36,888 bases of DNA, from assembly GCA_902795435.1 (NCBI GenBank), contig CADBLE010000004.1, positions 135,601-172,488 on the forward strand, given 5' to 3'. The notes beneath the pieces were generated by a model. The model ran no database searches. It was not told the origin of the DNA and saw nothing but the letters and a program-made list of their open reading frames with translations. Position numbers and translations under genes: made by a program. Shown piece by piece: positions 18,521-29,360 of the stretch; within the stretch, counting starts at the first letter, position 1, and every line of letters starts with the position of its first letter. Source of the stretch: an uncultured Pseudomonadota bacterium (GTDB taxonomy: Bacteria; Pseudomonadota; Alphaproteobacteria; Rs-D84).

Positions 18521-19734
18521 CAATAAGGGATATTTTGAAAGAATCTTGGTTGTCGGTCAGTGGAAATAAATTACGGTCTTTTTTGACCGTATTGGGCATT
18601 ATTATCGGTGTTATGGCGGTTGTTATAATGGTTGCAGTTGGTGAAACGGTGCAACAATCTATCACAGATCAATTTTCGTCACTTGGAACAAATACAATTG
18701 TTATTCGTGCGGGCGCGGCGCGTTCGGGTGGAATCAGAACGGGAAACAGACACACATTGACATTAGAGGACGCATCAGAAATCAAAAAATTACCAGATGT
18801 TGCCGCAATTACCCCGGCCCAGAGTTCGGGGGTTCAGGCAATATATGGAAATAAAAATTGGTCAACGGTTATGTTGGGTGTGTATCCTGATTACACAACA
18901 ATTCAAGATATAGAAATGGAAAAAGGTTCTTTCTTTGATGATATGTCGGTAAAAAATGCTGCAACATACGCGGTTATCGGACCAGATACCGCAATGGAAT
19001 TGGGAATGCCTGAAAATCCAGTTGGTGAAATAATCAGAATACAAAATATGCCATTTGTTATTGTTGGCATGACCAAGGCGCGCGGTGATTCAACCATGGG
19101 ATCGCAAGACGATATGATTTTAATCCCAATAACCACATTGAAAAAGAGATTACAGGGTTCTAAATTTCCGTCTTCTGTTGGAATGATAGCATTAAAATTA
19201 TTCCAAGATGCCGATAATAATGTTGTTATTGAACAAATAACATCTCTGTTGCGACAAAGACATAAAATCAAAGACGGTGATGAAGACGATTTTCAGGTTA
19301 CAGATATGAAACAAATAATGGAAACAATGAATACGGTTACGAGATATCTGAAATTATTATTGATAGCAATTGCGGGCGTGTCATTGTTGGTTGGTTCAAT
19401 TGGCATTATGAATATGATGTTGGTATCTGTCGCAGAAAGAACGCGTGAAATCGGGGTCAGAAAGGCAATTGGTGCCAAAGAACGTATGATAATAATTCAA
19501 TTTTTATCTGAATCTGTGATGATATCTTTTATTGGTTCAATGTTTGGTTTGGTATTTGGTGTTGGTCTATCCCAGGGTATTGGGCGATTTATATTGGAAT
19601 ATAATGTGCCGTTTTCAATATGGCCAGTTGTTTTGTCGGTTGGTGTCGCAATTGTTGTGGGATTGGCGTCTGGGGTTGTACCGGCGATAAAGGCGGCAAA
19701 ATTAAACCCAATAGACAGTTTAAGATACGAATAA
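18517..19734 (+). CDS. MacB-type ABC transporter permease
   Basis: The membrane subunit of the mechanotransmission exporter. The 405-residue protein has one N-terminal helix (F-L-T-V-L-G-I-I-I-G-V-M-A-V-V-I-M-V) and a large periplasmic MacB_PCD domain (about 50-270). Three C-terminal FtsX helices follow (from L-L-L-I-A-I-A-G-V-S-L-L-V-G; then S-F-I-G-S-M-F-G-L-V-F-G; then V-V-L-S-V-G-V-A-I-V-V-G). R-T-R-E-I-G-V-R-K-A-I-G-A is the classic FtsX coupling helix. Its ATG overlaps the ATPase stop (ATGA). No terminator is visible after it, so transcription may run on into the repeated leader at 19741. Confidence 0.92.
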   Translation: MTIRDILKESWLSVSGNKLRSFLTVLGIIIGVMAVVIMVAVGETVQQSITDQFSSLGTNTIVIRAGAARSGGIRTGNRHTLTLEDASEIKKLPDVAAITPAQSSGVQAIYGNKNWSTVMLGVYPDYTTIQDIEMEKGSFFDDMSVKNAATYAVIGPDTAMELGMPENPVGEIIRIQNMPFVIVGMTKARGDSTMGSQDDMILIPITTLKKRLQGSKFPSSVGMIALKLFQDADNNVVIEQITSLLRQRHKIKDGDEDDFQVTDMKQIMETMNTVTRYLKLLLIAIAGVSLLVGSIGIMNMMLVSVAERTREIGVRKAIGAKERMIIIQFLSESVMISFIGSMFGLVFGVGLSQGIGRFILEYNVPFSIWPVVLSVGVAIVVGLASGVVPAIKAAKLNPIDSLRYE

Positions 19735-19742
19735 AATTTACA

Positions 19743-19772
19743 CTTTTTTCAAGACCCAATTTTTGGTATAAT
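19743..19772 (+). promoter_or_regulatory. Leader promoter, copy 1
   Basis: -10 TATAAT (19767-19772) preceded by TGG (extended -10), with a weak -35 CTTTTT (19743-19748) at 18 bp. The copy at 27157-27162 keeps TATAAT and the TG dinucleotide. Confidence 0.65.
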
Positions 19773-19802
19773 ATTCATATCAAATAAAAGGGAAAAAAGA
19801 GA

Positions 19803-19856
19803 GTGAAAGTCGTGAAAGGCGCAGTTTTCTACACACACACACACACACACAGATAG
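19803..19856 (+). CDS. Possible leader micro-ORF with Thr-His repeats, copy 1
   Basis: A GTG frame of 17 codons reads V-K-V-V-K-G-A-V-F-Y, then Thr-His repeats encoded by the AC tract, then Arg and TAG. An AGGG lies about ten bases before the GTG. Copy 2 (27192-27251) has the same frame with three more AC units, which keeps the reading frame. A leader peptide in front of a terminator suggests attenuation, but translation is unproven. Confidence 0.3.
   Translation: MKVVKGAVFYTHTHTHR
19831..19850. repeat. (AC)10 microsatellite
   Basis: Ten perfect AC units in the transcribed leader of secreted protein 1. The equivalent tract in copy 2 has 13 units. Perfect dinucleotide tracts of this length are prone to slipped-strand mutation. 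Confidence 0.95.
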
Positions 19857-19860
19857 TTTC

Positions 19861-19977
19861 GTTGCGTGTATAAATTGCGTGAATTGTATTCACGCGAATA
19901 TGAAAACAGACAAATAACCGTTGCGTGTATAAATTGCGTGAATTGTATTCACGCGAATATGAAAACAGACAAATAAC
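19861..19977. repeat. 59-bp tandem duplication in leader 1
   Basis: Two identical 58-bp units (19861-19918 and 19920-19977) separated by one base. Each contains the hairpin GCGTGAAT/ATTCACGC (19877-19895 and 19936-19954) and the left arm of the terminator; only the second unit is followed by the right arm. Leader 2 has a single unit, so this duplication is recent. Confidence 0.95.
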
Positions 19978-20006
19978 GTTGATGACGTTATTTGTCTGTT
20001 TTTTTA
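19962..20006 (+). terminator. Attenuator-like terminator between promoter and gene, copy 1
   Basis: A perfect 18-bp stem (19962-19979 with 19985-20002), loop TGATG, ending in a T run. It lies downstream of the promoter and only about 25 bases before the start codon at 20030, so expression of the gene needs read-through or remodelling of the hairpin; otherwise the leader is released as a small RNA of about 220 nt. Confidence 0.85.
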
Positions 20007-20029
20007 TTTAATAAACAAAGGAAGGAAAA

Positions 20030-21238
20030 ATGAAAAATAAAATATTTTTAAGTTCTATGTTGATAATGTCGGTTGCGCCGGCATTTGCGGAAGATTTTCC
20101 GTCAAACGGTTTAATGACGGAAAATAAAACATATACCAATGCCGCGACATCAACCAACATGGACGGTGTTTATGAAGGAACCGTAAATGCGGTTGCGGAA
20201 TATGATATCATAGATTATATCGTAAATGCGGGACAATATTTGCCGGCGGATTCTGAAACCGTGATTACATGTCCGGCGGGAAGTTATTGTCCGGGAATCA
20301 GTGGTAATGTCCAATATAATCAAACAACGGCTCAGGGTATACAAACATGTCCATCTGGTTTTGGCAGTTCTGCGGCGGGTGCATCATCAAACACCCAATG
20401 TTATCGTGCATGCGATATAAATAATATGGGTGAAAATGGTTCTATTTCATCTATCGCGCACGCAACAGCAATCAGCGGTAACGATTATTATGGTTCTGGC
20501 ACCGATACATGCGAACCAACGGCATGTGAAAACGGATGGCATGTCAAGGCAGCAGTAACCGCCCCAAATTTAACCAATATAATTGGAGTAAGCGAAAGGG
20601 CCAACGGTCATACATCAAACGATAGTACTGGCGCCGACTCTGATACCGATAATATGTCCAATACAATAATAGCAAATGACCCAATGGCATTTGCGGTAGA
20701 TTACGGCACAAAAGGCATAATCAAGGGACACGGCAGATGTTCAACCCGTAATGTAGCGAATCCATGGGAAGACAATAATAATACATTTGAATCTGACCAT
20801 TTTGTAAGTAATTTAACGGATGAAACAGGTACGGGAAAAAATTGCTATTGCCAGTTGGATAGTTATACAACGGCTGGTGGGGATACTACTGCCTTGTCTG
20901 CCCCGTGGGTGTTCCGCAACGCCGAGGACGGCGCTGACGATTGTGCGGACGATTGCACGGATGTCTGTGCGCTCAGCCTGCAGAGCGGCTACTCGTCCGC
21001 CCTCGCGTTCCGTGCTGCGGTTTTCGGTTCAATTGAATCAAGCCCGGCCATGTGTGAAGCGAACACAATTACAATTAATTGGTCAAACGCGGATGCGGCG
21101 GACGTTACCGCAAACAATGCGGGTACCGCGACATACGGTTCTGATGTCCGTACCCCTGTCAAGGCTCAGACAATTAAGGGTAAAACATTTAAGGGTTGGC
21201 GTTTCAGCAAACCAACACAAACAACAACCGGTAATTAA
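20030..21238 (+). CDS. Secreted Cys-rich protein with hypervariable patch and InlB-like C-terminal repeat
   Basis: The 402-residue product has a Sec signal peptide cleaved after A-F-A (residue 20). A conserved N-terminal domain is followed by a Cys-rich motif of the ephrin-receptor/GCC2-GCC3 kind (C-P-A-G-S-Y-C-P-G ... G-I-Q-T-C-P-S-G-F, ending T-Q-C-Y). A central domain runs from C-E-P-T-A-C-E-N-G-W. The patch at about residues 296-325 is GC-rich and Cys-spaced (C-x3-C-x3-C). The C-terminus (E-A-N-T-I-T-I-N-W ... F-K-G-W-R-F) resembles a degenerate InlB/Listeria-Bacteroides repeat. GGAAGGAA precedes the ATG. The destination is the periplasm, outer surface or medium; function is unknown. A paralogue lies at 27369. 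Confidence 0.85.
   Translation: MKNKIFLSSMLIMSVAPAFAEDFPSNGLMTENKTYTNAATSTNMDGVYEGTVNAVAEYDIIDYIVNAGQYLPADSETVITCPAGSYCPGISGNVQYNQTTAQGIQTCPSGFGSSAAGASSNTQCYRACDINNMGENGSISSIAHATAISGNDYYGSGTDTCEPTACENGWHVKAAVTAPNLTNIIGVSERANGHTSNDSTGADSDTDNMSNTIIANDPMAFAVDYGTKGIIKGHGRCSTRNVANPWEDNNNTFESDHFVSNLTDETGTGKNCYCQLDSYTTAGGDTTALSAPWVFRNAEDGADDCADDCTDVCALSLQSGYSSALAFRAAVFGSIESSPAMCEANTITINWSNADAADVTANNAGTATYGSDVRTPVKAQTIKGKTFKGWRFSKPTQTTTGN
20915..21004 (+). other. GC-rich hypervariable cassette in secreted protein 1
   Basis: By hand count 60 of 90 bases are G or C, against a much more AT-rich gene and genome. It lies between the conserved TGGGTGTTC and GCGTTCCGT. No codon in the cassette ends in A. 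Compared with the paralogue (28162-28245), nearly all codons differ except TGT-GCG, TGC and TGT-GCG. Confidence 0.8.
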
Positions 21239-21257
21239 ATTTACCGTTCATAAAAAA

Positions 21258-21284
21258 ACACCGGCATTTGCCGGTGTTTTTTTT
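21258..21284. terminator. Bidirectional terminator between secreted protein 1 and rpsO
   Basis: Stem ACACCGGCA (21258-21266)/TGCCGGTGT (21269-21277), with A on the left and T on the right. It can end both the plus-strand gene and convergent rpsO. Confidence 0.85.
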
Positions 21285-21301
21285 CATAATTTTCTAGAAA
21301 A

Positions 21302-21574
21302 TTATTTACGCAGACCCAATTTTTTAATCAGGACTTCGTATTCTTCAACATTATGATTTTTGATATAAGCCAACAATCTTTTACGACGGTTTACCATCAA
21401 TAACAAACCACGTTTGGAATGTTCGTCTTTGTGATTTGCCTTCATATGTTCTGTTAAATTACGGATACGTTCTGTTAAAACAGCAACCTGAGATGCTGCG
21501 GAACCACCGTTATCGCGTTCACTTGTTTTGAACGCAGCGACCAATTCGCTTTTCTTTTCTTTTGTAATGGACAT
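21302..21574 (-). CDS. rpsO: 30S ribosomal protein S15
   Basis: S15 binds 16S rRNA helices 20-22 and helps assemble the small-subunit platform. The 90-residue protein has the standard length and signature (N-L-T-E-H-M-K, H-S-K-R-G-L-L-x-x-V-x-R-R-K-R-L-L-x-Y). AAGG lies upstream of the ATG at 21574; an extra ATG-TAA start-stop pair lies between the two, which could affect initiation. It is 16 bases downstream of truB, but pnp, its usual partner, is 12 kb away. Confidence 0.97.
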
Positions 21575-21590
21575 TACATTTTTCCTTTTG

Positions 21591-22460
21591 TTATAAAGTT
21601 CTTTTTGGACGAATCAAACCGTCTTTTATAACACCAATCCCAATAAATGTTTCGTTATTGTAAATTCGGCGCAGACCGTTCGTTTCGTCGGTTTTTATGA
21701 ATCCACCGTTTTTATATAATTCAGTGTCTTCGTTATTCAAATTGATTACCGGAATGTCCCCCAGCGCACAATCTGAAGACAACAAATATTTATTTGCGTC
21801 GCCACCATTATTGACCAGATTTTCCAAAAAATCAAGTTTTACCGCATTTTTTATGTCAAAGCCGTTTGTTTTTGTTCGTCTGATATATGTTGTTGTGGCA
21901 ATGGCACCACATAATTTTGCAATATCACGAACCAGAGAACGCACGTATGTTCCACGTGAACAGACAACGCGGAAATTGTATTCTGGACCCTGCTTTCCAA
22001 TAAATTCCAATTCGTAAATAATAACTTTTTTTGGCTTTATATCAACGATTTCGCCATGTCGTGCCAATTCGTATGCGCGTTTCCCATTTACATGAACCGC
22101 AGAAAACATAGGTGGAATTTGCCCTATTTCGCCGGTCAATTTTTTACATGCATTTAATATTTCATTATCGGTTGGAATTATGTCATTTGTTTTGGTTGTT
22201 TTTCCCGTTATATCCAAAGAATCAGTATTCACACCAAATTTCAGACCGAATAAATATTCTTTTTTATTTTCAACAATTTCTTCTATGAACGGAATCATTT
22301 TGGTCGCGTTTCCAATAACAATTGGCAAAACACCGCTGGCCATTGGGTCCAATGTTCCGATATGTCCGAATTTTTTCTGGTTAAACATCTTGGCAATTCG
22401 CCAACCCGCGCTGCGGCTGAATATACCACTGTCTTTGTCCAAGATGATTATTCCGTTCAT
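21591..22460 (-). CDS. truB: tRNA pseudouridine-55 synthase TruB
   Basis: TruB makes pseudouridine 55 in the T loop of tRNAs and acts as a tRNA chaperone. In 289 residues the motif [11 protein letters not shown] carries the catalytic aspartate D38. [10 protein letters not shown] matches motif III. The C-terminal part corresponds to a short PUA-like region. Its ATG follows the mutS stop directly (TAA-ATG), and rpsO follows, so xseB-mutS-truB-rpsO forms one unit. Confidence 0.96.
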
Positions 22461-24965
22461 TTATTTTCCAAATAAAGATAATTGTTCTTTTGTATCTGGT
22501 TCTTTGACCATTGGTTTAATTGACGGTTTTTCTTTCACAACAATTCTTTCAGGTGCAGATTTGTTTTCAAGGTTTGATAAAACCTGTTCTGCGCGTTCTA
22601 CAACCCTTGTTGGCATACCCGCCATTTTCGCCACCGCAATACCGTAAGAGCGATTCGCCACCCCAGGTATAATTTTATGTAAAAATACTATGTCATTATT
22701 GTGTTCGCGAACATCTATTGTTAAACAAGATACATGTTCCAATTTATTATCACCAACCAAACTGGTCAATTCGTGATAATGTGTTGCAAACAATGTGCGT
22801 GGTGTTAAATTGTTCAAATATTCCAACACAGATTGCGCAATTGCCATACCGTCAAATGTTGATGTTCCGCGCCCTATTTCGTCAAATATTATGAAAGATT
22901 TACGGGTCGCACGATTTAATATGTTTGCGGTTTCAACCATTTCTACCATAAATGTAGATTGACCCGCCGCTAAATTATCAGATGCACCGACACGACTGAA
23001 TAATTGGTCACAAATTCCAATTGTAGCGTATGTTGCCGGCACAAATGACCCCAGGTGAGCCAACACAACCAATATCGCGTTCTGACGCAAATATGTTGAT
23101 TTACCCGCCATATTAGGACCCGTCAATAATGCGATTTCTGTTTTGTTCAGATTACAATCGTTTTTAACAAAACTGTTCCCGTTATGACGCAATACGTGTT
23201 CTATAACTGGATGACGACCGCCAACAATTTCAAATTCATTATTATTTGTTATTGTTGGGCAAACCCAATTATATAAATCTGCGCATTCTGCCAAAGATAA
23301 CCAAACATCAACATCTGCGATTAAATCGGCAGTATTCATTAAATCTTGTGATATTTCTTGAATGTTTTTTATTAAATCTTCGATTATTTCGTTTTCTATC
23401 GCGGTTGCTTTTTCAGATGCACTGCGAATATCGTTATCCAAATCAATCAATTGTGCGGTTGTAAAACGCATGTTGCCCGCCATTGTTTGACGATGTATAA
23501 ATCCAGATTCGGGTGCCATTAAAACATCTGCGCGAGATGAAGGAACCTCTATAAAATAGCCCAAAATATTATTGTATTTTATCTTTAATGTGGCGACATT
23601 TGTTTGTTCAATATATTTTGCCTGTAATTCAGCAATTGTCCCCATTGCGCCATTTGATAAATTACGCATATTATCCAATGATGGATCAAAACCATTTCTG
23701 ATAACATTGCCATCTCTGAAAAATGTAGGTAAATCTTCGTTTAAAGCGGAACGCAATTTATTTGCAAAATCGTTATGCGTTTCAATTTGTGAAAATCTGG
23801 CAGACATTTCAGAATCTAATTTTTCACCCAATGCCTTGATATCGTCCAAATTGTTCAGAAATTCAGATATATTTTTCATATCACGTGGTGTGCCACGACC
23901 TGATAATAATCTGGACAATGCGCGATTTGCATCTGGGACACGGGATAAAATATTAGATGCCATTGCCATAACATTATGATTTGATAACAAATGTCCAATG
24001 TGTGTTTGACGCGATAAAATAACATCTTTATCTCCCGGCAAAGTTCTTAAATAAGAACGCAATTTTCGTGCGCCATTTGCAGTGCGTGTTTTATCTATTA
24101 CATCTAATAAACATGTGCCACCGTCATTTAATGGTGCGTCTATTTCCAAACTTTTCCAAGTGGCAGAATCAATCAATAATTGACGGCCAGATTTGAAATT
24201 ATAAGGTGTTCTGAACGAAATATTTGCACCGCGTTGTGTGTTAAACAAATATCCCGCCATCAATGTAATTGCATTGGAATTTTCGTCTGGCTTTATATTT
24301 CCACCAAATACATGTGAAACAATTAAATTTATATCACTGCGAACATATAATTTTTCATATACAGGTGTTGTTTTATAAATTTCACGCAGATTTTTTATAA
24401 TCTGATTTTCAGCCGATGCTTCCGGATAAATTATTTCCGCAGGATTTATTCTTATCATATCGTCTATGATAGAATCAGTTGTGCCAACAAAAATTTCACC
24501 CGTTGAAATGTCGCAACCCGCTATATCAAATTTTGCATTTTCAATTGGAAAAATAGATACCAAAAAATTAGATTTTTTTGGACTTAATAAATTTTCATCA
24601 GTCAATGTTCCCGGTGTTAAAACACGTATAACCTGGCGTTCTATGAATTTATGTCCGCGTTCTTTGGCCTGGGCCGGTGTTTCCATTTGTTCAACCAAAG
24701 CAACCTTGAACCCAGATTTAACAAGTCTTCCAAAATAATTATCGGCGGCATGCCATGGAATACCACACATTGGAACATCAACACCAAAACCGTCTGTTCC
24801 ACGATGTGTTAAAACCAAAGATAGTGTTTCGCTGACTGTTTTTGCGTCCTCGAAAAACGCTTCGTAAAAATCGCCCAAACGAAACATTAAAAGAGCGTCA
24901 GGATTTTCCGCCTTCATATCAACATACTGTTGCATAACAGGCGAAAGTTTATTTTTTTCAGCCAT
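22461..24965 (-). CDS. mutS: DNA mismatch repair protein MutS
   Basis: MutS recognises mismatches and recruits MutL. The 834-residue protein begins with the mismatch-binding domain (M-x-x-Y-x-x-x-K, F-R-L-G-D-F-Y-E with the intercalating Phe-x-Glu motif). Connector, core and clamp domains follow, then the ATPase: Walker A G-P-N-M-A-G-K-S-T near 614-622, F-D-E-I-G-R-G-T-S-T-F-D-G and T-H-Y-H-E-L. The end L-S-L-F-G-K resembles a short terminal peptide seen in other MutS proteins. xseB is two bases upstream. With functional MutS, slippage at the AC tracts would be partly restrained. Confidence 0.97.
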   Translation of the reverse strand: MAEKNKLSPVMQQYVDMKAENPDALLMFRLGDFYEAFFEDAKTVSETLSLVLTHRGTDGFGVDVPMCGIPWHAADNYFGRLVKSGFKVALVEQMETPAQAKERGHKFIERQVIRVLTPGTLTDENLLSPKKSNFLVSIFPIENAKFDIAGCDISTGEIFVGTTDSIIDDMIRINPAEIIYPEASAENQIIKNLREIYKTTPVYEKLYVRSDINLIVSHVFGGNIKPDENSNAITLMAGYLFNTQRGANISFRTPYNFKSGRQLLIDSATWKSLEIDAPLNDGGTCLLDVIDKTRTANGARKLRSYLRTLPGDKDVILSRQTHIGHLLSNHNVMAMASNILSRVPDANRALSRLLSGRGTPRDMKNISEFLNNLDDIKALGEKLDSEMSARFSQIETHNDFANKLRSALNEDLPTFFRDGNVIRNGFDPSLDNMRNLSNGAMGTIAELQAKYIEQTNVATLKIKYNNILGYFIEVPSSRADVLMAPESGFIHRQTMAGNMRFTTAQLIDLDNDIRSASEKATAIENEIIEDLIKNIQEISQDLMNTADLIADVDVWLSLAECADLYNWVCPTITNNNEFEIVGGRHPVIEHVLRHNGNSFVKNDCNLNKTEIALLTGPNMAGKSTYLRQNAILVVLAHLGSFVPATYATIGICDQLFSRVGASDNLAAGQSTFMVEMVETANILNRATRKSFIIFDEIGRGTSTFDGMAIAQSVLEYLNNLTPRTLFATHYHELTSLVGDNKLEHVSCLTIDVREHNNDIVFLHKIIPGVANRSYGIAVAKMAGMPTRVVERAEQVLSNLENKSAPERIVVKEKPSIKPMVKEPDTKEQLSLFGK

Positions 24966-24967
24966 AT

Positions 24968-25171
24968 TTATTCACCGGTGGTTGATACCTTTAATGTTTC
25001 AATTTTTAATTCGGCTTCTTTCAATAATTGTTCGCAATATGCTTTCAATTTTATGCCCTGTTCATACGCGGCAACAGAATCAGACAAAGGTAATTCACCA
25101 GATTCCATTTTCTTTACCAATTCAGTCAATTGTTTATATGCTTCTTCAAAAGAAAGTTGATTGTTTTCCAT
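24968..25171 (-). CDS. xseB: Exodeoxyribonuclease VII small subunit
   Basis: XseB forms helical dimers that bind the large XseA subunit of single-strand exonuclease VII. With the ATG at 25171 the protein has 67 residues, slightly short for the family, and carries the typical S-F-E-E-A-Y-K-Q-L-T-E-L-V and M-E-S-G-E-L-P-L-S-D-S-V-A-A-Y-E-x-G motifs. A frame open to 25246 passes through the promoter and is rejected. AAAAGGA precedes the ATG. It heads the mutS operon; xseA is not in the window. Confidence 0.92.
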   Translation of the reverse strand: MENNQLSFEEAYKQLTELVKKMESGELPLSDSVAAYEQGIKLKAYCEQLLKEAELKIETLKVSTTGE

Positions 25172-25201
25172 TGCATATTTCCTTTTTATTTCATGAATTT
25201 T

Positions 25202-25230
25202 AAGATACCGCATAAAAAGTCCGTTTGCAA
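25202..25230 (-). promoter_or_regulatory. Promoter of xseB-mutS-truB-rpsO
   Basis: Minus strand: -35 TTGCAA (25230-25225), 17-bp spacer, -10 TATCTT (25207-25202), immediately after the infC terminator. Confidence 0.55.
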
Positions 25231-25232
25231 AT

Positions 25233-25255
25233 AAAAAAACCGCCATAATGGCGGT
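25233..25255 (-). terminator. infC terminator
   Basis: Minus strand: ACCGCCA (25255-25249) pairs with TGGCGGT (25245-25239), followed by seven T then A-T. It begins just after the infC stop. Confidence 0.8.
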
Positions 25256-25258
25256 CTG

Positions 25259-25807
25259 TTATTTTGCAGGTGCAATTATGATAGATTTTGTTCTGTCATC
25301 TGGTTTTGATTTTGATTCCAATGAACCCTTGTCCCCTAATAATTCAACAATATGTTCGAATAATTGTGGAACCGCATCACGACCACGTGCCAAAACCTTT
25401 TTGTTTCCGTGTGTCATAACTGCAATTTTAACTTTGTTTCCTTCGGCCAAGAATTCGAAAACCTTTTTCATTTTGATATTCAAATCGTTTTCTTCAATAA
25501 AAGGTTTTACCCAAACTTCTTTCAATTCAATTGTTTTTTGTTTTTTGCGCGCTTCATTTGCCCTTTTCTTTTGGTCGTATTTGAATTTACCATAATCCAT
25601 TATTTTAACCAAAACAGGTGTTGCGTTTGCATTTATTTCAACCAAATCAAGACCAGCGTCCATCGCCATATTCAATGCGTCTGCTGTATTCATAGTGCCA
25701 AGGTTTTGACCATCTTGACTGATTACTTGAACTGATTTTGCAAATATTTTTTCGTTCATACGTGGGCCTAAATCACGGCCTTTGTTATTTTGCATAGAGT
25801 TTTTAAT
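25259..25807 (-). CDS. infC: Translation initiation factor IF-3, probable AUU start
   Basis: IF-3 keeps ribosomal subunits apart and checks the start codon. The protein has the N-terminal domain (D-G-x-x-L-G, A-L-N-M-A-M-D-A-G-L-D-L-V-E-I), the basic linker (Y-G-K-F-K-Y-D-Q-K-K-R) and the C-terminal domain (K-E-V-W-V-K-P-F, H-x-x-K-V-L-A-R-G). The first ATG (25795) has no Shine-Dalgarno sequence at a workable distance, but AAAGGAG (25820-25814) lies exactly six bases before an in-frame ATT at 25807-25805. AUU is the known autoregulated start codon of infC in E. coli and relatives, so I place the start there (182 residues). rpmI and rplT do not follow. Confidence 0.93.
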   Translation of the reverse strand: MKNSMQNNKGRDLGPRMNEKIFAKSVQVISQDGQNLGTMNTADALNMAMDAGLDLVEINANATPVLVKIMDYGKFKYDQKKRANEARKKQKTIELKEVWVKPFIEENDLNIKMKKVFEFLAEGNKVKIAVMTHGNKKVLARGRDAVPQLFEHIVELLGDKGSLESKSKPDDRTKSIIIAPAK

Positions 25808-25849
25808 TGTTGGCTCCTTTTATAAATTCCAACAAATTATTAAATATTT

Positions 25850-26590
25850 TTACAGGTTTTTCAACAATTTTTGCACATTTTGCAGGACCAACCATACATC
25901 TTTCTTGGCACTTGGTTTTAACATCAAATAATTTGGATGGTATATTGGGAATATTTTATAGCCCTGGTCTGATTGGATTTCATTTCCGTGATTTGTTGTT
26001 AAATTTGTTTTTGCTATCTCGGTTGCGGACAGTGTTCCCAATGTCAAAACAATCTTTGGTTGCAACATATCTAACATTTTATCTATGAATGGACGAACCA
26101 AATCTAATTCTTCGCGTGTTGGGGTGCGTCCGCCCGGTGTGCGCCAGAAAACCAGCGGTATAATAGATACATTTTCACGGGACATTTCAATGGCTGATAA
26201 CATTTTATCTATCATTTCACCGGCCCCGCCAGATAAAATTTGACCAGATAAATCATCATCTGCACTGGGCATATCTGTAATTATAACCAAACCATTTGGA
26301 TTTGATGCAATATTTGGCATAGCAACATTTGTTGCACCATTTCGTAATGGGTGGTTAAATTCTGCAACCATACGAACGAGTGCATTTATATTTTCAGGTC
26401 TTTCAACCATAGATTTCACAGTTTCAAGTGTCAAAGGTGCGCTGGCAGGAACAATAATAGGTTTTACCTCTATGCGATTCGTTTGAGATTCTTGTTTTGT
26501 TTTTATTTTTGCACCAAAATTAGACGGGTTTTCCGCCAATTCCCATTGGACCCCGGCCATTTTCAATTCTTGTATCGCATTGATTCCCAT
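25850..26590 (-). CDS. Uracil-DNA glycosylase superfamily protein, no Fe-S cysteines
   Basis: The 246-residue product resembles the C-terminal domain of family 4 uracil-DNA glycosylases: a D-M-P-S-A-D-D-D motif in place of G-E-A-P-G-x-x-E-D, G-G-A-G-E-M-I-D-K-M-L, W-R-T-P-G-G-R-x-P-T, L-T-L-G-x-x-S-A and H-P-N-Y-L-M. It has a roughly 95-residue N-terminal extension and no cysteine at all, so the family 4Fe-4S cluster cannot form. AAGGA before the ATG at 26590 sets the start; an open frame to 26644 lacks one. Glycosylase activity is uncertain. infC follows after 42 bases. Confidence 0.75.
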   Translation of the reverse strand: MGINAIQELKMAGVQWELAENPSNFGAKIKTKQESQTNRIEVKPIIVPASAPLTLETVKSMVERPENINALVRMVAEFNHPLRNGATNVAMPNIASNPNGLVIITDMPSADDDLSGQILSGGAGEMIDKMLSAIEMSRENVSIIPLVFWRTPGGRTPTREELDLVRPFIDKMLDMLQPKIVLTLGTLSATEIAKTNLTTNHGNEIQSDQGYKIFPIYHPNYLMLKPSAKKDVWLVLQNVQKLLKNL

Positions 26591-26599
26591 GATTTGTCC

Positions 26600-26628
26600 T
26601 TGATTTTTACCACTTCTTGATATACAAT
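26600..26628 (+). promoter_or_regulatory. pal promoter
   Basis: -35 TTGATT (26600-26605), 17-bp spacer, -10 TACAAT (26623-26628), in the 74-bp divergent gap between the UDG-like gene and pal. Confidence 0.5.
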
Positions 26629-26664
26629 ACACATTGAGCAACAAAAACTCAAGGGAGTATTTTC

Positions 26665-27081
26665 ATGAAAATAATGAACTTTGCTTTGTTGGCTGGTGTA
26701 GCTGGACTGTTGGCATCTTGCGGCGGTTCAAGCATCGTTGAACCAGCTGATTTGAACAACCAACGCGTTTTCTTCGCTTTCAATTCTGCAGAAATCTCAG
26801 ATGAAGCACACGATAACTTGTTGGGTCAATCTTTGTATATGAAACACCACGAAGGAACAAAAATCCAAATCGCAGGTAATTGCGACGAACGTGGTTCAAC
26901 TGAATACAACTTGGCTTTGGGTGCACGTCGTGCAAACGCAGCAAAGGCAGTATTGGTTGAAGATGGTGTAGAAGCATCTCGTATCTCCACTATCTCTTAC
27001 GGTAAAGAACGTCCATTGGTCAAAGGTACCGGTGAAGAAGTTTGGCAATATAACCGTAATGCTACAACAACAGTTAAATAA
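26665..27081 (+). CDS. pal: Peptidoglycan-associated lipoprotein Pal
   Basis: Pal is an outer-membrane lipoprotein that grips peptidoglycan and works with Tol proteins in cell constriction. In 138 residues it has a lipoprotein signal with lipobox L-L-A-S-C (C19) and an OmpA-like domain: V-F-F-A-F-N-S-A-E-I, then G-N-C-D-E-R-G-S-T-E-Y-N-L-A-L-G-x-R-R-A. GGGAG precedes the ATG. Codon use is cleaner than in nearby genes, as expected for high expression. The tolQ, tolR, tolA and tolB genes are absent, and a short linker makes the protein smaller than many Pal proteins. Confidence 0.95.
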   Translation: MKIMNFALLAGVAGLLASCGGSSIVEPADLNNQRVFFAFNSAEISDEAHDNLLGQSLYMKHHEGTKIQIAGNCDERGSTEYNLALGARRANAAKAVLVEDGVEASRISTISYGKERPLVKGTGEEVWQYNRNATTTVK

Positions 27082-27102
27082 TAACTTTTGTTATATATAA
27101 AA

Positions 27103-27129
27103 AATACCGGCGATTGCCGGTATTTTTTT
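27103..27129 (+). terminator. pal terminator
   Basis: Stem AATACCGGC (27103-27111)/GCCGGTATT (27116-27124), GATT loop, followed by T. The leader 2 module begins straight after it. Confidence 0.9.
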
Positions 27130-27191
27130 GTGCTTTTTTTAAGGTCCAATTTTTGATATAATATTCATATCAAATAAAGGGAAAAAAGAGA

Positions 27192-27251
27192 GTGAAAGTC
27201 GTGAAAGCCGCAGTTTTCTACACACACACACACACACACACACACAGATAG
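27192..27251 (+). CDS. Possible leader micro-ORF with Thr-His repeats, copy 2
   Basis: A GTG frame of 19 codons, V-K-V-V-K-A-A-V-F-Y then Thr-His repeats, Arg and TAG. It differs from copy 1 by one Gly/Ala change and two extra codons from the longer AC tract. Translation is unproven. Confidence 0.3.
   Translation: MKVVKAAVFYTHTHTHTHR
27220..27245. repeat. (AC)13 microsatellite
   Basis: Thirteen perfect AC units at the position equivalent to (AC)10 in leader 1; the six-base difference keeps the micro-ORF frame. Confidence 0.95.
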
Positions 27252-27267
27252 TTTCGTTGCGTGATTG

Positions 27268-27290
27268 TTGTGCGAATGAAATTCGCACAA
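27268..27290 (+). other. Stem-loop of leader 2 (compensatory change)
   Basis: Perfect 10-bp stem TTGTGCGAAT/ATTCGCACAA with loop GAA. The same place in leader 1 has GCGTGAAT/ATTCACGC: both arms have changed while pairing is kept. Confidence 0.8.
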
Positions 27291-27295
27291 TTATG

Positions 27296-27341
27296 AAAAC
27301 AGACAAATAACGTTGATGACGTTATTTGTCTGTTTTTTTTT
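27296..27341 (+). terminator. Attenuator-like terminator between promoter and gene, copy 2
   Basis: Perfect 18-bp stem (27296-27313 with 27319-27336), loop TGATG, T run. Sequence identical to copy 1 and again about 30 bases before the start codon. Confidence 0.85.
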
Positions 27342-27368
27342 ATTTAACAACAGAAAGGAAGGAAGAAA

Positions 27369-28458
27369 ATGAAACAAAAAATCTTTTTAACGTCTTGTAT
27401 AGCAATGGGCTTTGTTGCGCCTGCAATGGCGGAAACATTTCCGTCAAACGGTTTAATGCAACAAAACAAAACATACGATAATGCCGCAACATCAACAAAT
27501 ATGGACGGCGTATATTCGGGAACCGTAAACGCGGTTGCGGAATACGATATCATAGATTATATCGTCAATGCAGGACAATATTTACCGGCGGATTCTGAAA
27601 CCGTAATAACATGTCCGGCGGGAAGTTATTGTCCGGGAATCAGCGGTAATGTCCAATATAATCAAAGTTCTGACCAGGGTATACAAACATGTCCAACGGG
27701 CTATAAATTCGGATGTTGCACATTCACGTGGAACGGTAAACGGTGGCTATTATTATGGTGATAACAACCAATGCGAACCAACAGATTGTGTCAACGGTTG
27801 GCATTTGAAAGCGGGCAGCAGCGCCCCAAATATTGGAACGGGCGAAGGCACCAGTATTGCATATATAAACAATAGTGGTTCATTCAGTGAAAACAGTGCA
27901 AGTCATGGACAATCATATTATGGCTTAACCAACAATAACACATGGGCGGTAGATTACGGCACCAACGGAATGTTGATTGGTCAGGGACGTTGTTCCACAC
28001 AAGAAGGTACTAATAATGATTGGACATGGACAAACCCAACAATAACATCAAATTTAACGGATGAAACGGGACAAACGGGGGCACAATATTGTTATTGTAA
28101 TGTAACCGGATATACACCGAATGGTGGAACCTTGCAGGGTGTGTCTTCCCCATGGGTGTTCAGCAGCGACGCCGGCGGCGCGTCGACTTGTGCGGGCGGC
28201 TGCGCTAACACTTGTGCGAGCATCATGCGTAACGCGAGGGAGTCCGCGTTCCGTACTACATTGCTCGGTTCTGTAACAGGGGTTCAATCTGGTCCAGCCG
28301 TGTGTGAAGCAAATACAATTACAATTAATTGGTCTGATGCAAGTGCGGCGGATATATCCGCAAACAATGCGGGTACCGCAACCTATGGCAGCGACGTCAG
28401 AACCCCAGTTAAGGCCGCAACCAAGAAAGGTCAAACATTCCGTGGCTGGCGTTTCAGT
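27369..28458 (+). pseudogene. Secreted Cys-rich protein paralogue, frameshifted and 3'-truncated
   Basis: The first frame (27369-27761) encodes a Sec signal peptide (cleavage after A-M-A, residue 21) and an N-terminal domain nearly identical to that of the gene at 20030. It then meets a deletion of about 80 bases at roughly 27698 and stops at 27759-27761. Homology resumes in the +1 frame (from S-D-V-A-H, through C-E-P-T-D-C-V-N-G-W) and continues to G-W-R-F-S at about 28458. There the normal end and terminator are missing: the frame runs antisense into parB, whose stop is 24 bases away. Downstream parts, including the hypervariable cassette, are otherwise intact, so the damage is recent, or the gene is a reservoir or a switched-off state. 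Confidence 0.8.
28162..28245 (+). other. GC-rich hypervariable cassette in the paralogue
   Basis: By hand count 57 of 84 bases are G or C; no codon ends in A. It sits between TGGGTGTTC and GCGTTCCGT exactly as in the gene at 20030 but is two codons shorter, and the encoded residues differ except for C-A-x2-C-x3-C-A. Confidence 0.8.
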
Positions 28459-28481
28459 GCATTTTTTATTCTTTTTAATAT

Positions 28482-29360
28482 TTATTTTGTCGATAGTTTT
28501 TTGATTAAATCTTCCATTTGCAGACGATTTGTAAATGAAATAACAATATTCCCCGCCCCACCCTTTTTTTCTTGTATTTTTACTTTGGTTTGTAAATGTT
28601 TTGACAGGTTTGTTTCAATTTTATTTACATATTGTGCGTCCAATGTGTTTTTTACAAAATTACGGCTGGTTTTTGCACGTGTTGTTTTGTTTACGCGATT
28701 TTGTGCTTCTGCCACAGATAATTTATTGTTTATGATTTCGTGTGCTAATTCTTCTGGGTTTTCAGCAACCGCAATTGTTCGTGCGTGTGATGCGGATAAT
28801 TCGCCATTTCTGACCAATTCTTTGACTGATTCAGGCAAATCATTTATACGCATCAGATTGCGGATATAACTGGCTGATTTTCCTATCAATTTTGATACAT
28901 CTTCTATACTATAAGCACATTTTTGCATCAGGTTTTCATAACCCTCTGCTTCTTCAATCGGGTTCAGGTTTTCGCGTTGAACATTTTCTATCAAAGCAAT
29001 TTCCATTGCATTTTGATTGGTCAATGTTTTTACCAATGCTGGTATTTCGCTTAAACCCGCCATTTTAGCCGCACGATATCTTCTTTCGCCCGCCACGATT
29101 TCATAAAGATAAGGTTTGTTTTGGACCGGTCTTATAATAATTGGAACCAATACGCCCTTTTCTTTTATAGATTCACTTAAATCTTTTAATTCGGCTTCTG
29201 AAAAAGTTTTTCGTGGCTGGTCTGGGTTTGGGCTAATTTGAACCAATGGAATTGGTTTTACAACCACCCTTTCAAGACCGGTCAAAACAGAAATATCCGG
29301 TATTTGACCCATTTCTTGATTTAATTCAGCAAGTCCTTTGCCTAAAAATTTAGATGACAT
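28482..29360 (-). CDS. parB: Chromosome partitioning protein ParB
   Basis: ParB is a CTP-dependent clamp that loads at parS and spreads, guiding origin segregation with ParA. The 292-residue protein has box I (I-S-P-N-P-D-Q-P-R-K, about 42-51), the CTP-binding box II G-E-R-R-Y-R-A-A (91-98) and E-N-V-Q-R-E-N-L-N-P. A helix-turn-helix follows around 145-175 (I-E-D-V-S-K-L-I-G-K-S-A-S-Y-I-R-N-L) and then the C-terminal dimer domain. It follows parA by two bases. Its 3' end abuts the truncated secreted-protein gene, so it may have lost its own terminator. Confidence 0.97.
   Translation of the reverse strand: MSSKFLGKGLAELNQEMGQIPDISVLTGLERVVVKPIPLVQISPNPDQPRKTFSEAELKDLSESIKEKGVLVPIIIRPVQNKPYLYEIVAGERRYRAAKMAGLSEIPALVKTLTNQNAMEIALIENVQRENLNPIEEAEGYENLMQKCAYSIEDVSKLIGKSASYIRNLMRINDLPESVKELVRNGELSASHARTIAVAENPEELAHEIINNKLSVAEAQNRVNKTTRAKTSRNFVKNTLDAQYVNKIETNLSKHLQTKVKIQEKKGGAGNIVISFTNRLQMEDLIKKLSTK

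What the first reader, a model, noticed from the sequence alone, without database searches (positions are those of the whole stretch)
19741..28458. Duplicated leader-plus-gene module controlling secreted Cys-rich proteins
Two loci 7.4 kb apart share the same complex leader (extended -10 promoter, GTG micro-ORF, AC microsatellite, hairpin, intrinsic terminator, strong ribosome-binding site) followed by paralogous exported proteins. The intact leader architecture despite local divergence suggests a functional expression-control cassette belonging to a larger family in this genome. I know of no described system with this exact arrangement.
Basis: partly seen in the sequence, partly recalled or inferred. 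Interest (0 to 1): 0.85.

Follow-up and report, generated by a model that had tools for sequence, protein, structure and literature searches.

The report
Repeat-counting stop switch before genes
In a bacterium with a very small genome, probably a gut commensal, twelve copies of one gene leader carry an AC repeat whose length sets the reading frame of a tiny predicted upstream gene; this likely decides, cell by cell, whether a predicted built-in stop signal blocks the predicted secreted-protein gene behind it.

Summary
The two leaders are real and belong to a family: 13 copies in this 0.95 Mb genome, 12 with the repeat in view; the cassette pattern matches 25 of 156 genus genomes, this one included. 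A typical leader has an RBS-started micro-ORF running through (AC)n, or (AG)n in some relatives, then a hairpin, an intrinsic terminator and the gene's RBS. The 2-nt unit lets length select among three frames. In 12 of 16 representative leaders exactly one frame reaches the terminator (null 6.8, P=0.005); in 10 it stops at or in the 5' arm (null 3.0, P=4e-5). In 10 of 12 leaders both other frames stop 28-52 nt earlier, beyond the ~27 nt limit reported in E. coli (PMC4824070). The repeat also precedes one long open frame in 55 of 90 contexts. Best reading: phase-variable transcription attenuation, known from Streptococcus gallolyticus pil1/pil3 (PMC3894217), here in Candidatus Enterousia-type Alphaproteobacteria. 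The proteins also carry retroelement-type variable regions. Not shown: expression, switching, length change within a strain. Window copy 1 breaks the rule (duplicated leader); copy 2's gene is broken. New variant of a known kind.

The parts
19764..19772 (+). Copy 1 extended -10 promoter element (TGGTATAAT)
   Evidence: TGNTAWAAT lies upstream of the repeat in 43 of 90 contexts, 1.6 expected from mononucleotide shuffles. The -35/-10 scan did not list it.
19803..19856 (+). Copy 1 predicted leader micro-ORF in its assembled phase (GTG ... TAG 6 nt after the repeat): predicted OFF
19831..19850 (+). Copy 1 (AC)10 dinucleotide repeat
19860..19977 (+). Copy 1: 59-nt tandem duplication (hairpin plus terminator 5' arm), seen in this copy only among the own-genome leaders; the longest frame ends in the first unit (TAA 19915-19917), about 43 nt short of the working terminator
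19961..20003 (+). Copy 1 intrinsic terminator (20-bp stem, U tract)
20018..20025 (+). Copy 1 ribosome-binding site of the downstream gene
   Evidence: Sequence
20030..21238 (+). Copy 1 gene: intact 402-aa predicted exported Cys-rich protein, one of 17 paralogous loci
20906..21019 (+). Copy 1 retroelement-type variable region
   Evidence: 20 of 33 template A positions changed against 8 of 81 other positions, relative to the G112 template repeat
27154..27162 (+). Copy 2 extended -10 element (TGATATAAT)
27192..27251 (+). Copy 2 predicted leader micro-ORF in its assembled phase (GTG ... TAG): predicted OFF; the alternative frame would end at the TAA 27308-27310, inside the terminator 5' arm
27220..27245 (+). 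Copy 2 (AC)13 dinucleotide repeat
27264..27294 (+). Copy 2 hairpin 1 (candidate pause hairpin)
   Evidence: P=0.010 against shuffles
27295..27337 (+). Copy 2 intrinsic terminator
27355..27365 (+). Copy 2 ribosome-binding site
   Evidence: Sequence
27369..28457 (+). Copy 2 gene, broken: 130-aa open frame, then the rest of the homology in another frame, 3' end lost into the parB region
28153..28260 (+). Copy 2 retroelement-type variable region
   Evidence: 18 of 31 template A positions against 17 of 77 others

Best explanation
The leader is likely a phase-variable transcription attenuator: slippage in the (AC)n repeat would shift the reading frame of a predicted short leader ORF, and only one of its three frames would carry the ribosome to the predicted terminator, where it would keep the hairpin from forming and let the gene behind be transcribed. 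Shown by sequence: the repeat inside an RBS-preceded open frame; three frame outcomes, two of them stopping early in most leaders; one frame reaching or entering the terminator 5' arm in most leaders; a terminator stem that differs between relatives yet stays paired; a short gap between terminator and start codon (26 and 31 nt in the window); the same repeat cassette placed just before a long open frame in other loci. Inferred: that the repeat length changes in living cells; that the ON-frame ribosome arrives in time (hairpin 1 may pause the polymerase so that it does); that read-through is the main route to expression. In this assembly 4 of the 11 leaders that keep repeat and start codon are predicted ON (G000 copies on C1, C6, C8 and C9); both window copies are predicted OFF. 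Purpose, inferred: a stochastic on/off mix of variable surface or secreted proteins in a small-genome gut commensal.
For: Copies and anatomy: 13 leader copies in G000; cassette pattern 63 matches in 25 of 156 genus genomes, reversed-pattern control 8 matches; stricter pattern in 32 of 201 genomes at order level. Frames: of 16 representative terminator leaders exactly one frame reaches the terminator in 12 (null 6.8, P=0.005), and in 10 that frame also stops within -6..+20 of the 5' arm start (null 3.0, P=3.7e-5). Folding what a ribosome footprint would leave free: in 25 of 28 leaders given, one frame leaves at most -10.1 kcal/mol of structure while the other two leave -14.9 or stronger. In 10 of 12 leaders given both off-frame stops lie 28-52 nt before the terminator; on-frame stops lie between 4 nt before it and 55 nt past its start; E. 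coli data put full termination beyond about 27 nt (PMC4824070 passages). Two hairpin variants use different open frames yet end at the same TAA. A 33-nt duplication in L006 keeps the open frame. The repeat is (AC)n or (AG)n and the peptide is not conserved; the frame logic is. Terminator stems: 13 of 18 positions differ on both sides yet pair across four leaders. Repeat length differs in 37 of 42 near-identical pairs of contexts. Direct fusions: in 55 of 90 repeat contexts exactly one frame is open for 200 nt or more; the later of the two other stops has a median of 20 nt and a maximum of 79. A proven precedent has the same logic (PMC3894217).
Against: No RNA, protein or read-level data. 'At least one frame reaches the terminator' is not above chance (15 of 16, null 13.3, P=0.16), and the +20 window was chosen after seeing the data. 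The 16 leaders are not fully independent, and 4 fail: L305 (all three frames reach), L172 and L205 (two frames), L169 (none). Searches were given 28 of 32 and 12 of those 16 leaders; the ones left out include failures. Window copy 1 (L011) keeps its terminator in all three frames, so it would be locked off. Ribosomes may not catch the polymerase within the first ~100 nt (PMC4824070 passages); the proposed pause hairpin is above shuffles at P<0.05 in only 5 of 12 leaders. The same E. coli data show that a stop 17-18 nt away can act either way depending on sequence. The -35 is weak or absent. Length polymorphism was seen between paralogs and species only, and assembled repeat lengths may be wrong. 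GTG starts are predicted; one own copy (L013) has lost its start region.
Confidence: 0.76

Rival explanations
1. Ordinary amino-acid attenuation: the Thr-His run of the leader peptide would stall ribosomes when Thr or His is scarce and so relieve termination.
For: The AC repeat reads as alternating Thr and His whatever the frame, leader peptide plus hairpin plus terminator is the classical layout, and related small-genome lineages including Rs-D84 are reported to lack amino-acid synthesis (PMC12306168 passages).
Against: Some relatives use (AG)n, read Glu-Arg, with the same frame logic. Downstream genes in this genome are predicted secreted proteins, not biosynthetic. In most leaders two of three phases stop soon after the repeat. 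The same repeat precedes long open frames with no terminator. In copy 2 the predicted fold is hairpin 1 plus terminator; an antiterminator was not searched for systematically.
Confidence: 0.06
2. Relics: terminator leaders are decayed versions of the direct in-frame phase-variable genes, whose secreted-protein ORF was replaced by a gene with its own signal; the repeat would no longer control anything.
For: Cassette and hairpin sequences are shared with the direct fusions (e.g. L154 against L158). Window copy 1 and L013 look degraded.
Against: Repeats have 10-27 units in 27 of 32 terminator-class contexts, 7-9 in the other 5; terminators show paired changes; stop positions cluster at the terminator; and the gap from terminator to start codon is short (26 and 31 nt in the window; similar in most leaders listed), leaving little room for another promoter.
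Confidence: 0.1
3. The leader is mainly a recombination cassette: repeated 5' modules that let paralogs swap promoters and signal sequences, the repeat being incidental.
For: GCAGNNNTCT before the repeat is shared while its reading frame differs; the search pattern itself required this stretch, but (AS)n searches without it met GCAGNNNCCT variants. One near-identical protein body occurs with two different 5' modules (L143 and P0003). Four contig ends of the assembly fall in leader copies.
Against: Does not explain the one-open-frame pattern or the stop positions. Not exclusive of the best explanation.
Confidence: 0.08

Closest known systems
Streptococcus gallolyticus pil1/pil3 leader (Danne et al. 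2014, PMC3894217; abstract and passages seen)
   Same: Tandem repeat with a unit not divisible by three inside a leader ORF; intrinsic terminator before the gene; early stop in the low phase, stop at or in the hairpin in the high phase; surface protein genes behind.
   Different: Pentanucleotide GCAGA against dinucleotide AC/AG; Firmicute pilus operons (two loci) against a dozen or so leaders in one alphaproteobacterial genome. There one short and two long phases, here mostly one long and two short. There shown by mutants and chloramphenicol, here by sequence only.
E. coli pyrBI attenuator (recalled; mentioned in passages of PMC4824070)
   Same: Translation of a leader ORF into the terminator stops the hairpin from forming.
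   Different: pyrBI is set by UTP-dependent pausing; here the setting would be the repeat phase.
Translational phase variation by simple repeats in coding regions (contingency loci; recalled)
   Same: The direct-fusion contexts look like this by sequence: repeat near the ORF start, one open frame.
   Different: In the window's leaders the read-out would be a terminator, not the protein's own frame.
Diversity-generating retroelement target proteins
   Same: Several paralogs carry a variable region that differs from a relative's template repeat mostly at template A positions.
   Different: No reverse transcriptase or template repeat found in this assembly; no fold match in PDB or viral models.

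Membership tests
Phase-variable leader-peptide attenuator (S. gallolyticus type) | Tandem repeat whose unit is not a multiple of 3, inside an RBS-preceded leader ORF | tested here: met
   (start codons predicted)
Phase-variable leader-peptide attenuator (S. gallolyticus type) | Intrinsic terminator between leader ORF and gene | tested here: met
   By sequence and folding:
Phase-variable leader-peptide attenuator (S. gallolyticus type) | Repeat phase decides whether the ORF stops before or at/in the terminator | tested here: met
   12 of 16 representatives with exactly one reaching frame; window copy 2 meets it, window copy 1 does not
Phase-variable leader-peptide attenuator (S. gallolyticus type) | Repeat number changes within a strain and switches expression | not testable with these tools
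   Only lengths between paralogs or species: 37 of 42 near-identical pairs differ
Phase-variable leader-peptide attenuator (S. gallolyticus type) | Read-through depends on leader translation | not testable with these tools
   Needs mutants or RNA
Amino-acid (his/thr) attenuator | Leader peptide conserved for the regulated amino acid's codons | tested here: not met
   AC (Thr-His) in most, AG (Glu-Arg) in others
Amino-acid (his/thr) attenuator | Downstream biosynthetic or tRNA-charging gene | tested here: not met
   Predicted secreted proteins behind the leaders of this genome
Diversity-generating retroelement | Variable region with substitutions at template A positions | tested here: met
   Copy 1: 20/33 A against 8/81 non-A; copy 2: 18/31 against 17/77, relative to the template of sister species G112. 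Eight of the 17 paralogs have an AT-richer segment that fits this pattern poorly.
Diversity-generating retroelement | Template repeat and reverse transcriptase in the same genome | tested here: not met
   No PF00078 match in G000; all 9 matches of the template query lie in target genes; the assembly is ~90% complete
Diversity-generating retroelement | Target with a C-type-lectin-like fold (typical, recalled) | tested here: inconclusive
   AlphaFold2 model mean pLDDT 79.5, pTM 0.44; no PDB or viral match with E<=0.001

The most novel reading that the evidence does not exclude
A two-tier variation system in a ~1 Mb-genome gut alphaproteobacterium: a dozen repeat-counting attenuators choose at random which members of a paralog family are transcribed, while a retroelement rewrites the binding face of those same proteins. 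One promoter-repeat cassette has been moved onto unrelated secreted genes and read out in two ways, through the protein's own frame or through a terminator.
Probability: 0.42. Interest if true: 0.82.

Novelty: new variant of a known kind. Interest (0 to 1): 0.64.

Why it matters
In the open-access full-text searches made here (listings seen) repeat-switched attenuation has one described example and papers citing it. Finding the same logic spread over many loci in a distant phylum, beside in-frame switches built from the same cassette, suggests that it arises readily and may be common in uncultured gut bacteria. It also gives a concrete, countable predictor (repeat length modulo three) of which surface proteins are on in metagenomes, and a case where expression switching and retroelement hypermutation may act on the same proteins.

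Tried and rejected
Retroelement in this genome: searched for reverse transcriptase and for a template repeat; neither was found, so the genes are described as orphan targets only. RT is over the cut-off in 47 of 151 genus genomes; G112 has template, RT and target end on one contig.

Phage origin: the AC cassette pattern has 0 matches in viral contigs. Rfam: 17 matches up to E=1 on window 19600-28500, all below their gathering scores, taken as chance.

Protein fold: Foldseek on PDB and viral models gave no match with E<=0.001. Pfam and NCBIfam gave nothing for the copy 1 protein; Flg_new is sub-threshold for the second piece of copy 2.

Counting choices: a few of the 63 matches are not clean repeats (G089, G121, G135, G161:C5). 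In one search one representative per leader type was used (16 of the 32 terminator-class contexts); L130's terminator was placed by eye; L117, a broken direct gene, was not used. One search was given 28 of the 32: L117, L130, L169 and L305 were left out, and L169 would count as a miss; its three exceptions are L011, L172 and L205. One search was given 12 of the 16, leaving out the four that fail there. Canonical pairing of the stems is partly by construction, since the finder selects paired stems, and stems were lined up from the loop, not by sequence alignment. The 'direct' class is defined by a long open frame and contains some loci that are probably not the cassette (e.g. L112, L250, L264). 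In the automatic phase list the calls for L117, L130 and L305 rest on doubtful terminators and were not used. My notebook says 62 matches; the listing gives 63.
Full report
What is there. The window is contig C4:135601-172488 of a 0.95 Mb, 15-contig genome. Both fold far better than shuffles (copy 1 z -4.6; copy 2 z -3.9). Copy 1 lies between a MacB-type permease gene and rpsO, copy 2 between an OmpA-family gene and parB. Copy 1's leader has a 59-nt tandem duplication; copy 2's gene is broken by a frameshift and a lost 3' end.

Family in the genome. The leader query has 13 copies in the genome, four of them at contig ends; in 12 the AC repeat is in view (10 to 23 units), in the thirteenth (L012) it is cut. 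The protein has 17 paralogous loci, aligned (copy 2 as a piece), plus related stretches in giant open frames. Ten of the 17 carry the repeat leader (one cut by a contig start, one without its start region), four carry a different structured leader, two have a plain promoter, and one is cut by a contig start. Three more leaders sit at contig ends with no gene assembled behind them.

Family outside. The pattern GCAGNNNTCT(AN)6A occurs 63 times in 25 of 156 genomes of the genus, this genome with 11 included; the reversed control occurs 8 times. At order level a stricter pattern occurs in 32 of 201 genomes, all in the window's own family and spread over 7 of the 23 genera examined. A search without the GCAG stretch, in 16 chosen genomes, found further cassettes, among them three in G112 and one in G170 with terminator leaders. 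In the 84,980-species genome collection the AC form gives 46 stretches, all labelled Alphaproteobacteria, proteobacterium/Proteobacteria, Rickettsiales or Candidatus Enterousia; where the title names a source it is goat omasum, horse faeces, red deer or roe deer caecum. G070, same genus as the window, has a match at the same coordinates as a contig of Candidatus Enterousia merdequi, so I infer a Candidatus Enterousia-type organism, and from that a gut commensal.

The frame logic. In most repeat leaders the frame before the repeat is open and RBS-preceded. After the repeat, window copy 2 offers three outcomes: TAG at 6 nt, TGA at 19 nt, or an open frame ending with TAA at 65 nt, inside the terminator's 5' arm (50-69). 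A second hairpin variant closes that frame and opens another, which ends at the same TAA. In relatives the spacer, the terminator and even the repeat unit (AG) differ, but the logic holds: stop at 56 against arm start 56 (G029), 51 against 51 (G001), 53 against 53 (G170), 56-58 against 59-61 (G112), 52 against 57 (G171). Over 16 representatives, exactly one reaching frame occurs in 12 (null 6.8, P=0.005), and exactly one with its stop at the arm in 10 (null 3.0, P=3.7e-5). Merely having some reaching frame is not significant (15 against 13.3, P=0.16). The window was set after seeing the data and some leaders share ancestry, so these are supportive, not final.

Why distances matter. In E. coli a terminator is nearly silent when a stop codon lies a few bases before it and fully active beyond about 27 nt, with sequence-dependent values between (PMC4824070, passages seen). 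Here both off-frame stops lie 28-52 nt before the terminator in 10 of 12 leaders given, and the on-frame stops from 4 nt before it to 55 nt past its start. Folding the RNA left free by a ribosome at each stop leaves at most -10.1 kcal/mol in one frame and -14.9 or stronger in the other two in 25 of 28 leaders given. Window copy 1 is an exception: its duplication puts the working terminator out of reach in all frames. [quoted passage not shown] hairpin 1 could be the needed pause, but it exceeds shuffles at P<0.05 in only 5 of 12.

Two read-outs of one cassette. Of 90 distinct repeat contexts held, 55 have exactly one frame open for 200 nt or more, several with a signal-peptide-like stretch right after the repeat; 32 have a terminator and no long ORF; 3 are other. 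In the direct class the later of the two off-frame stops has a median of 20 nt, and 14 of 55 are in the open phase by an automatic start choice. Of the 11 own-genome leaders that keep repeat and start codon, 4 are predicted ON. Repeat length differs in 37 of 42 pairs whose following 100 nt are at least 93% identical; these pairs are between paralogs or species, not strains. An extended -10 precedes the repeat in 43 of 90 contexts, 1.6 expected from mononucleotide shuffles.

Known precedent. Danne et al. 2014 (PMC3894217; abstract and passages) report in S. gallolyticus that the number of GCAGA repeats in a leader ORF sets whether it stops 39-49 bp before a terminator or at/in it, with loss of effect under chloramphenicol and in start-codon and terminator mutants. 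The window's system would work like this. I file it as a variant, not as a relative: unit, sequence, genes and phylum differ, and the functional features are untested. Full-text searches listed no second such case. One with Enterousia, Rs-D84, phase variation, retroelement and microsatellite matched 128 papers on two or more terms, of which only ten were listed, none holding Enterousia. A 2025 review of phase variation does not contain the words leader, terminator or gallolyticus (PMC11868660, word search). Most subscription papers are not in that library.

The proteins. They are predicted secreted and Cys-rich, with no known-fold match. A segment of about 38 codons is GC-rich in 9 of 17 paralogs and different in the other 8. 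Against the template repeat of sister species G112, which lies beside a reverse transcriptase whose best PDB match is 8ub7 (E 1.7e-48; from recall a phage retroelement enzyme), copy 1 differs at 20 of 33 A and 8 of 81 other positions. The window's own assembly has neither template nor enzyme. So two layers of variation may act on the same genes, but the second layer was seen complete only in a relative.

Verdict.

Noticed in passing
L034:1271-1500, L035:2698-2925(-), L039:1271-1500, L045:2722-2949(-): Four other paralogs carry a different ~200-nt structured leader ending in a terminator; 18 of 60 predicted pairs show two-sided changes among four sequences. Its GGTTGGAGG arm could pair with either of two CCTCCAAC strands, one next to or overlapping the terminator; the second pairing resembles Rfam sRNA-Xcc1, below its gathering score, in two of the four. 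Among 316 held loci the exact core pattern occurs in 9, all from this genome. Candidate new cis-regulatory RNA.
   Followed up: partly
window 20906-21019 and 28153-28260; L248 (G112:C49): Retroelement-type variable regions in paralogs; template, reverse transcriptase and a target end on one contig of sister species G112, which also has (AG)n terminator leaders.
   Followed up: yes
G128:C54 (L143) and P0003: A near-identical protein body with the same variable region occurs with a repeat-bearing 5' end and with a plain signal-peptide 5' end: 5' modules seem to be swapped. G128:C54 also holds a reverse transcriptase.
   Followed up: partly
L003, L004 (G000:C1 and C6): The leader of these copies is interrupted by a stretch beginning ACAAGCAGTAGATT, which looks like a repeated insertion.
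   Followed up: no
GCAGNNNTCT before the repeat: This stretch is shared at nucleotide level while its reading frame differs between cassettes, so it may serve recombination or slippage rather than a peptide; the search pattern selected for it, but close variants turned up without that requirement.
   Followed up: no
G000:C5 (L047, L055): Open frames of 4358 and 2607 residues contain stretches of the same protein family, the first with the variable-region end motif.
   Followed up: no
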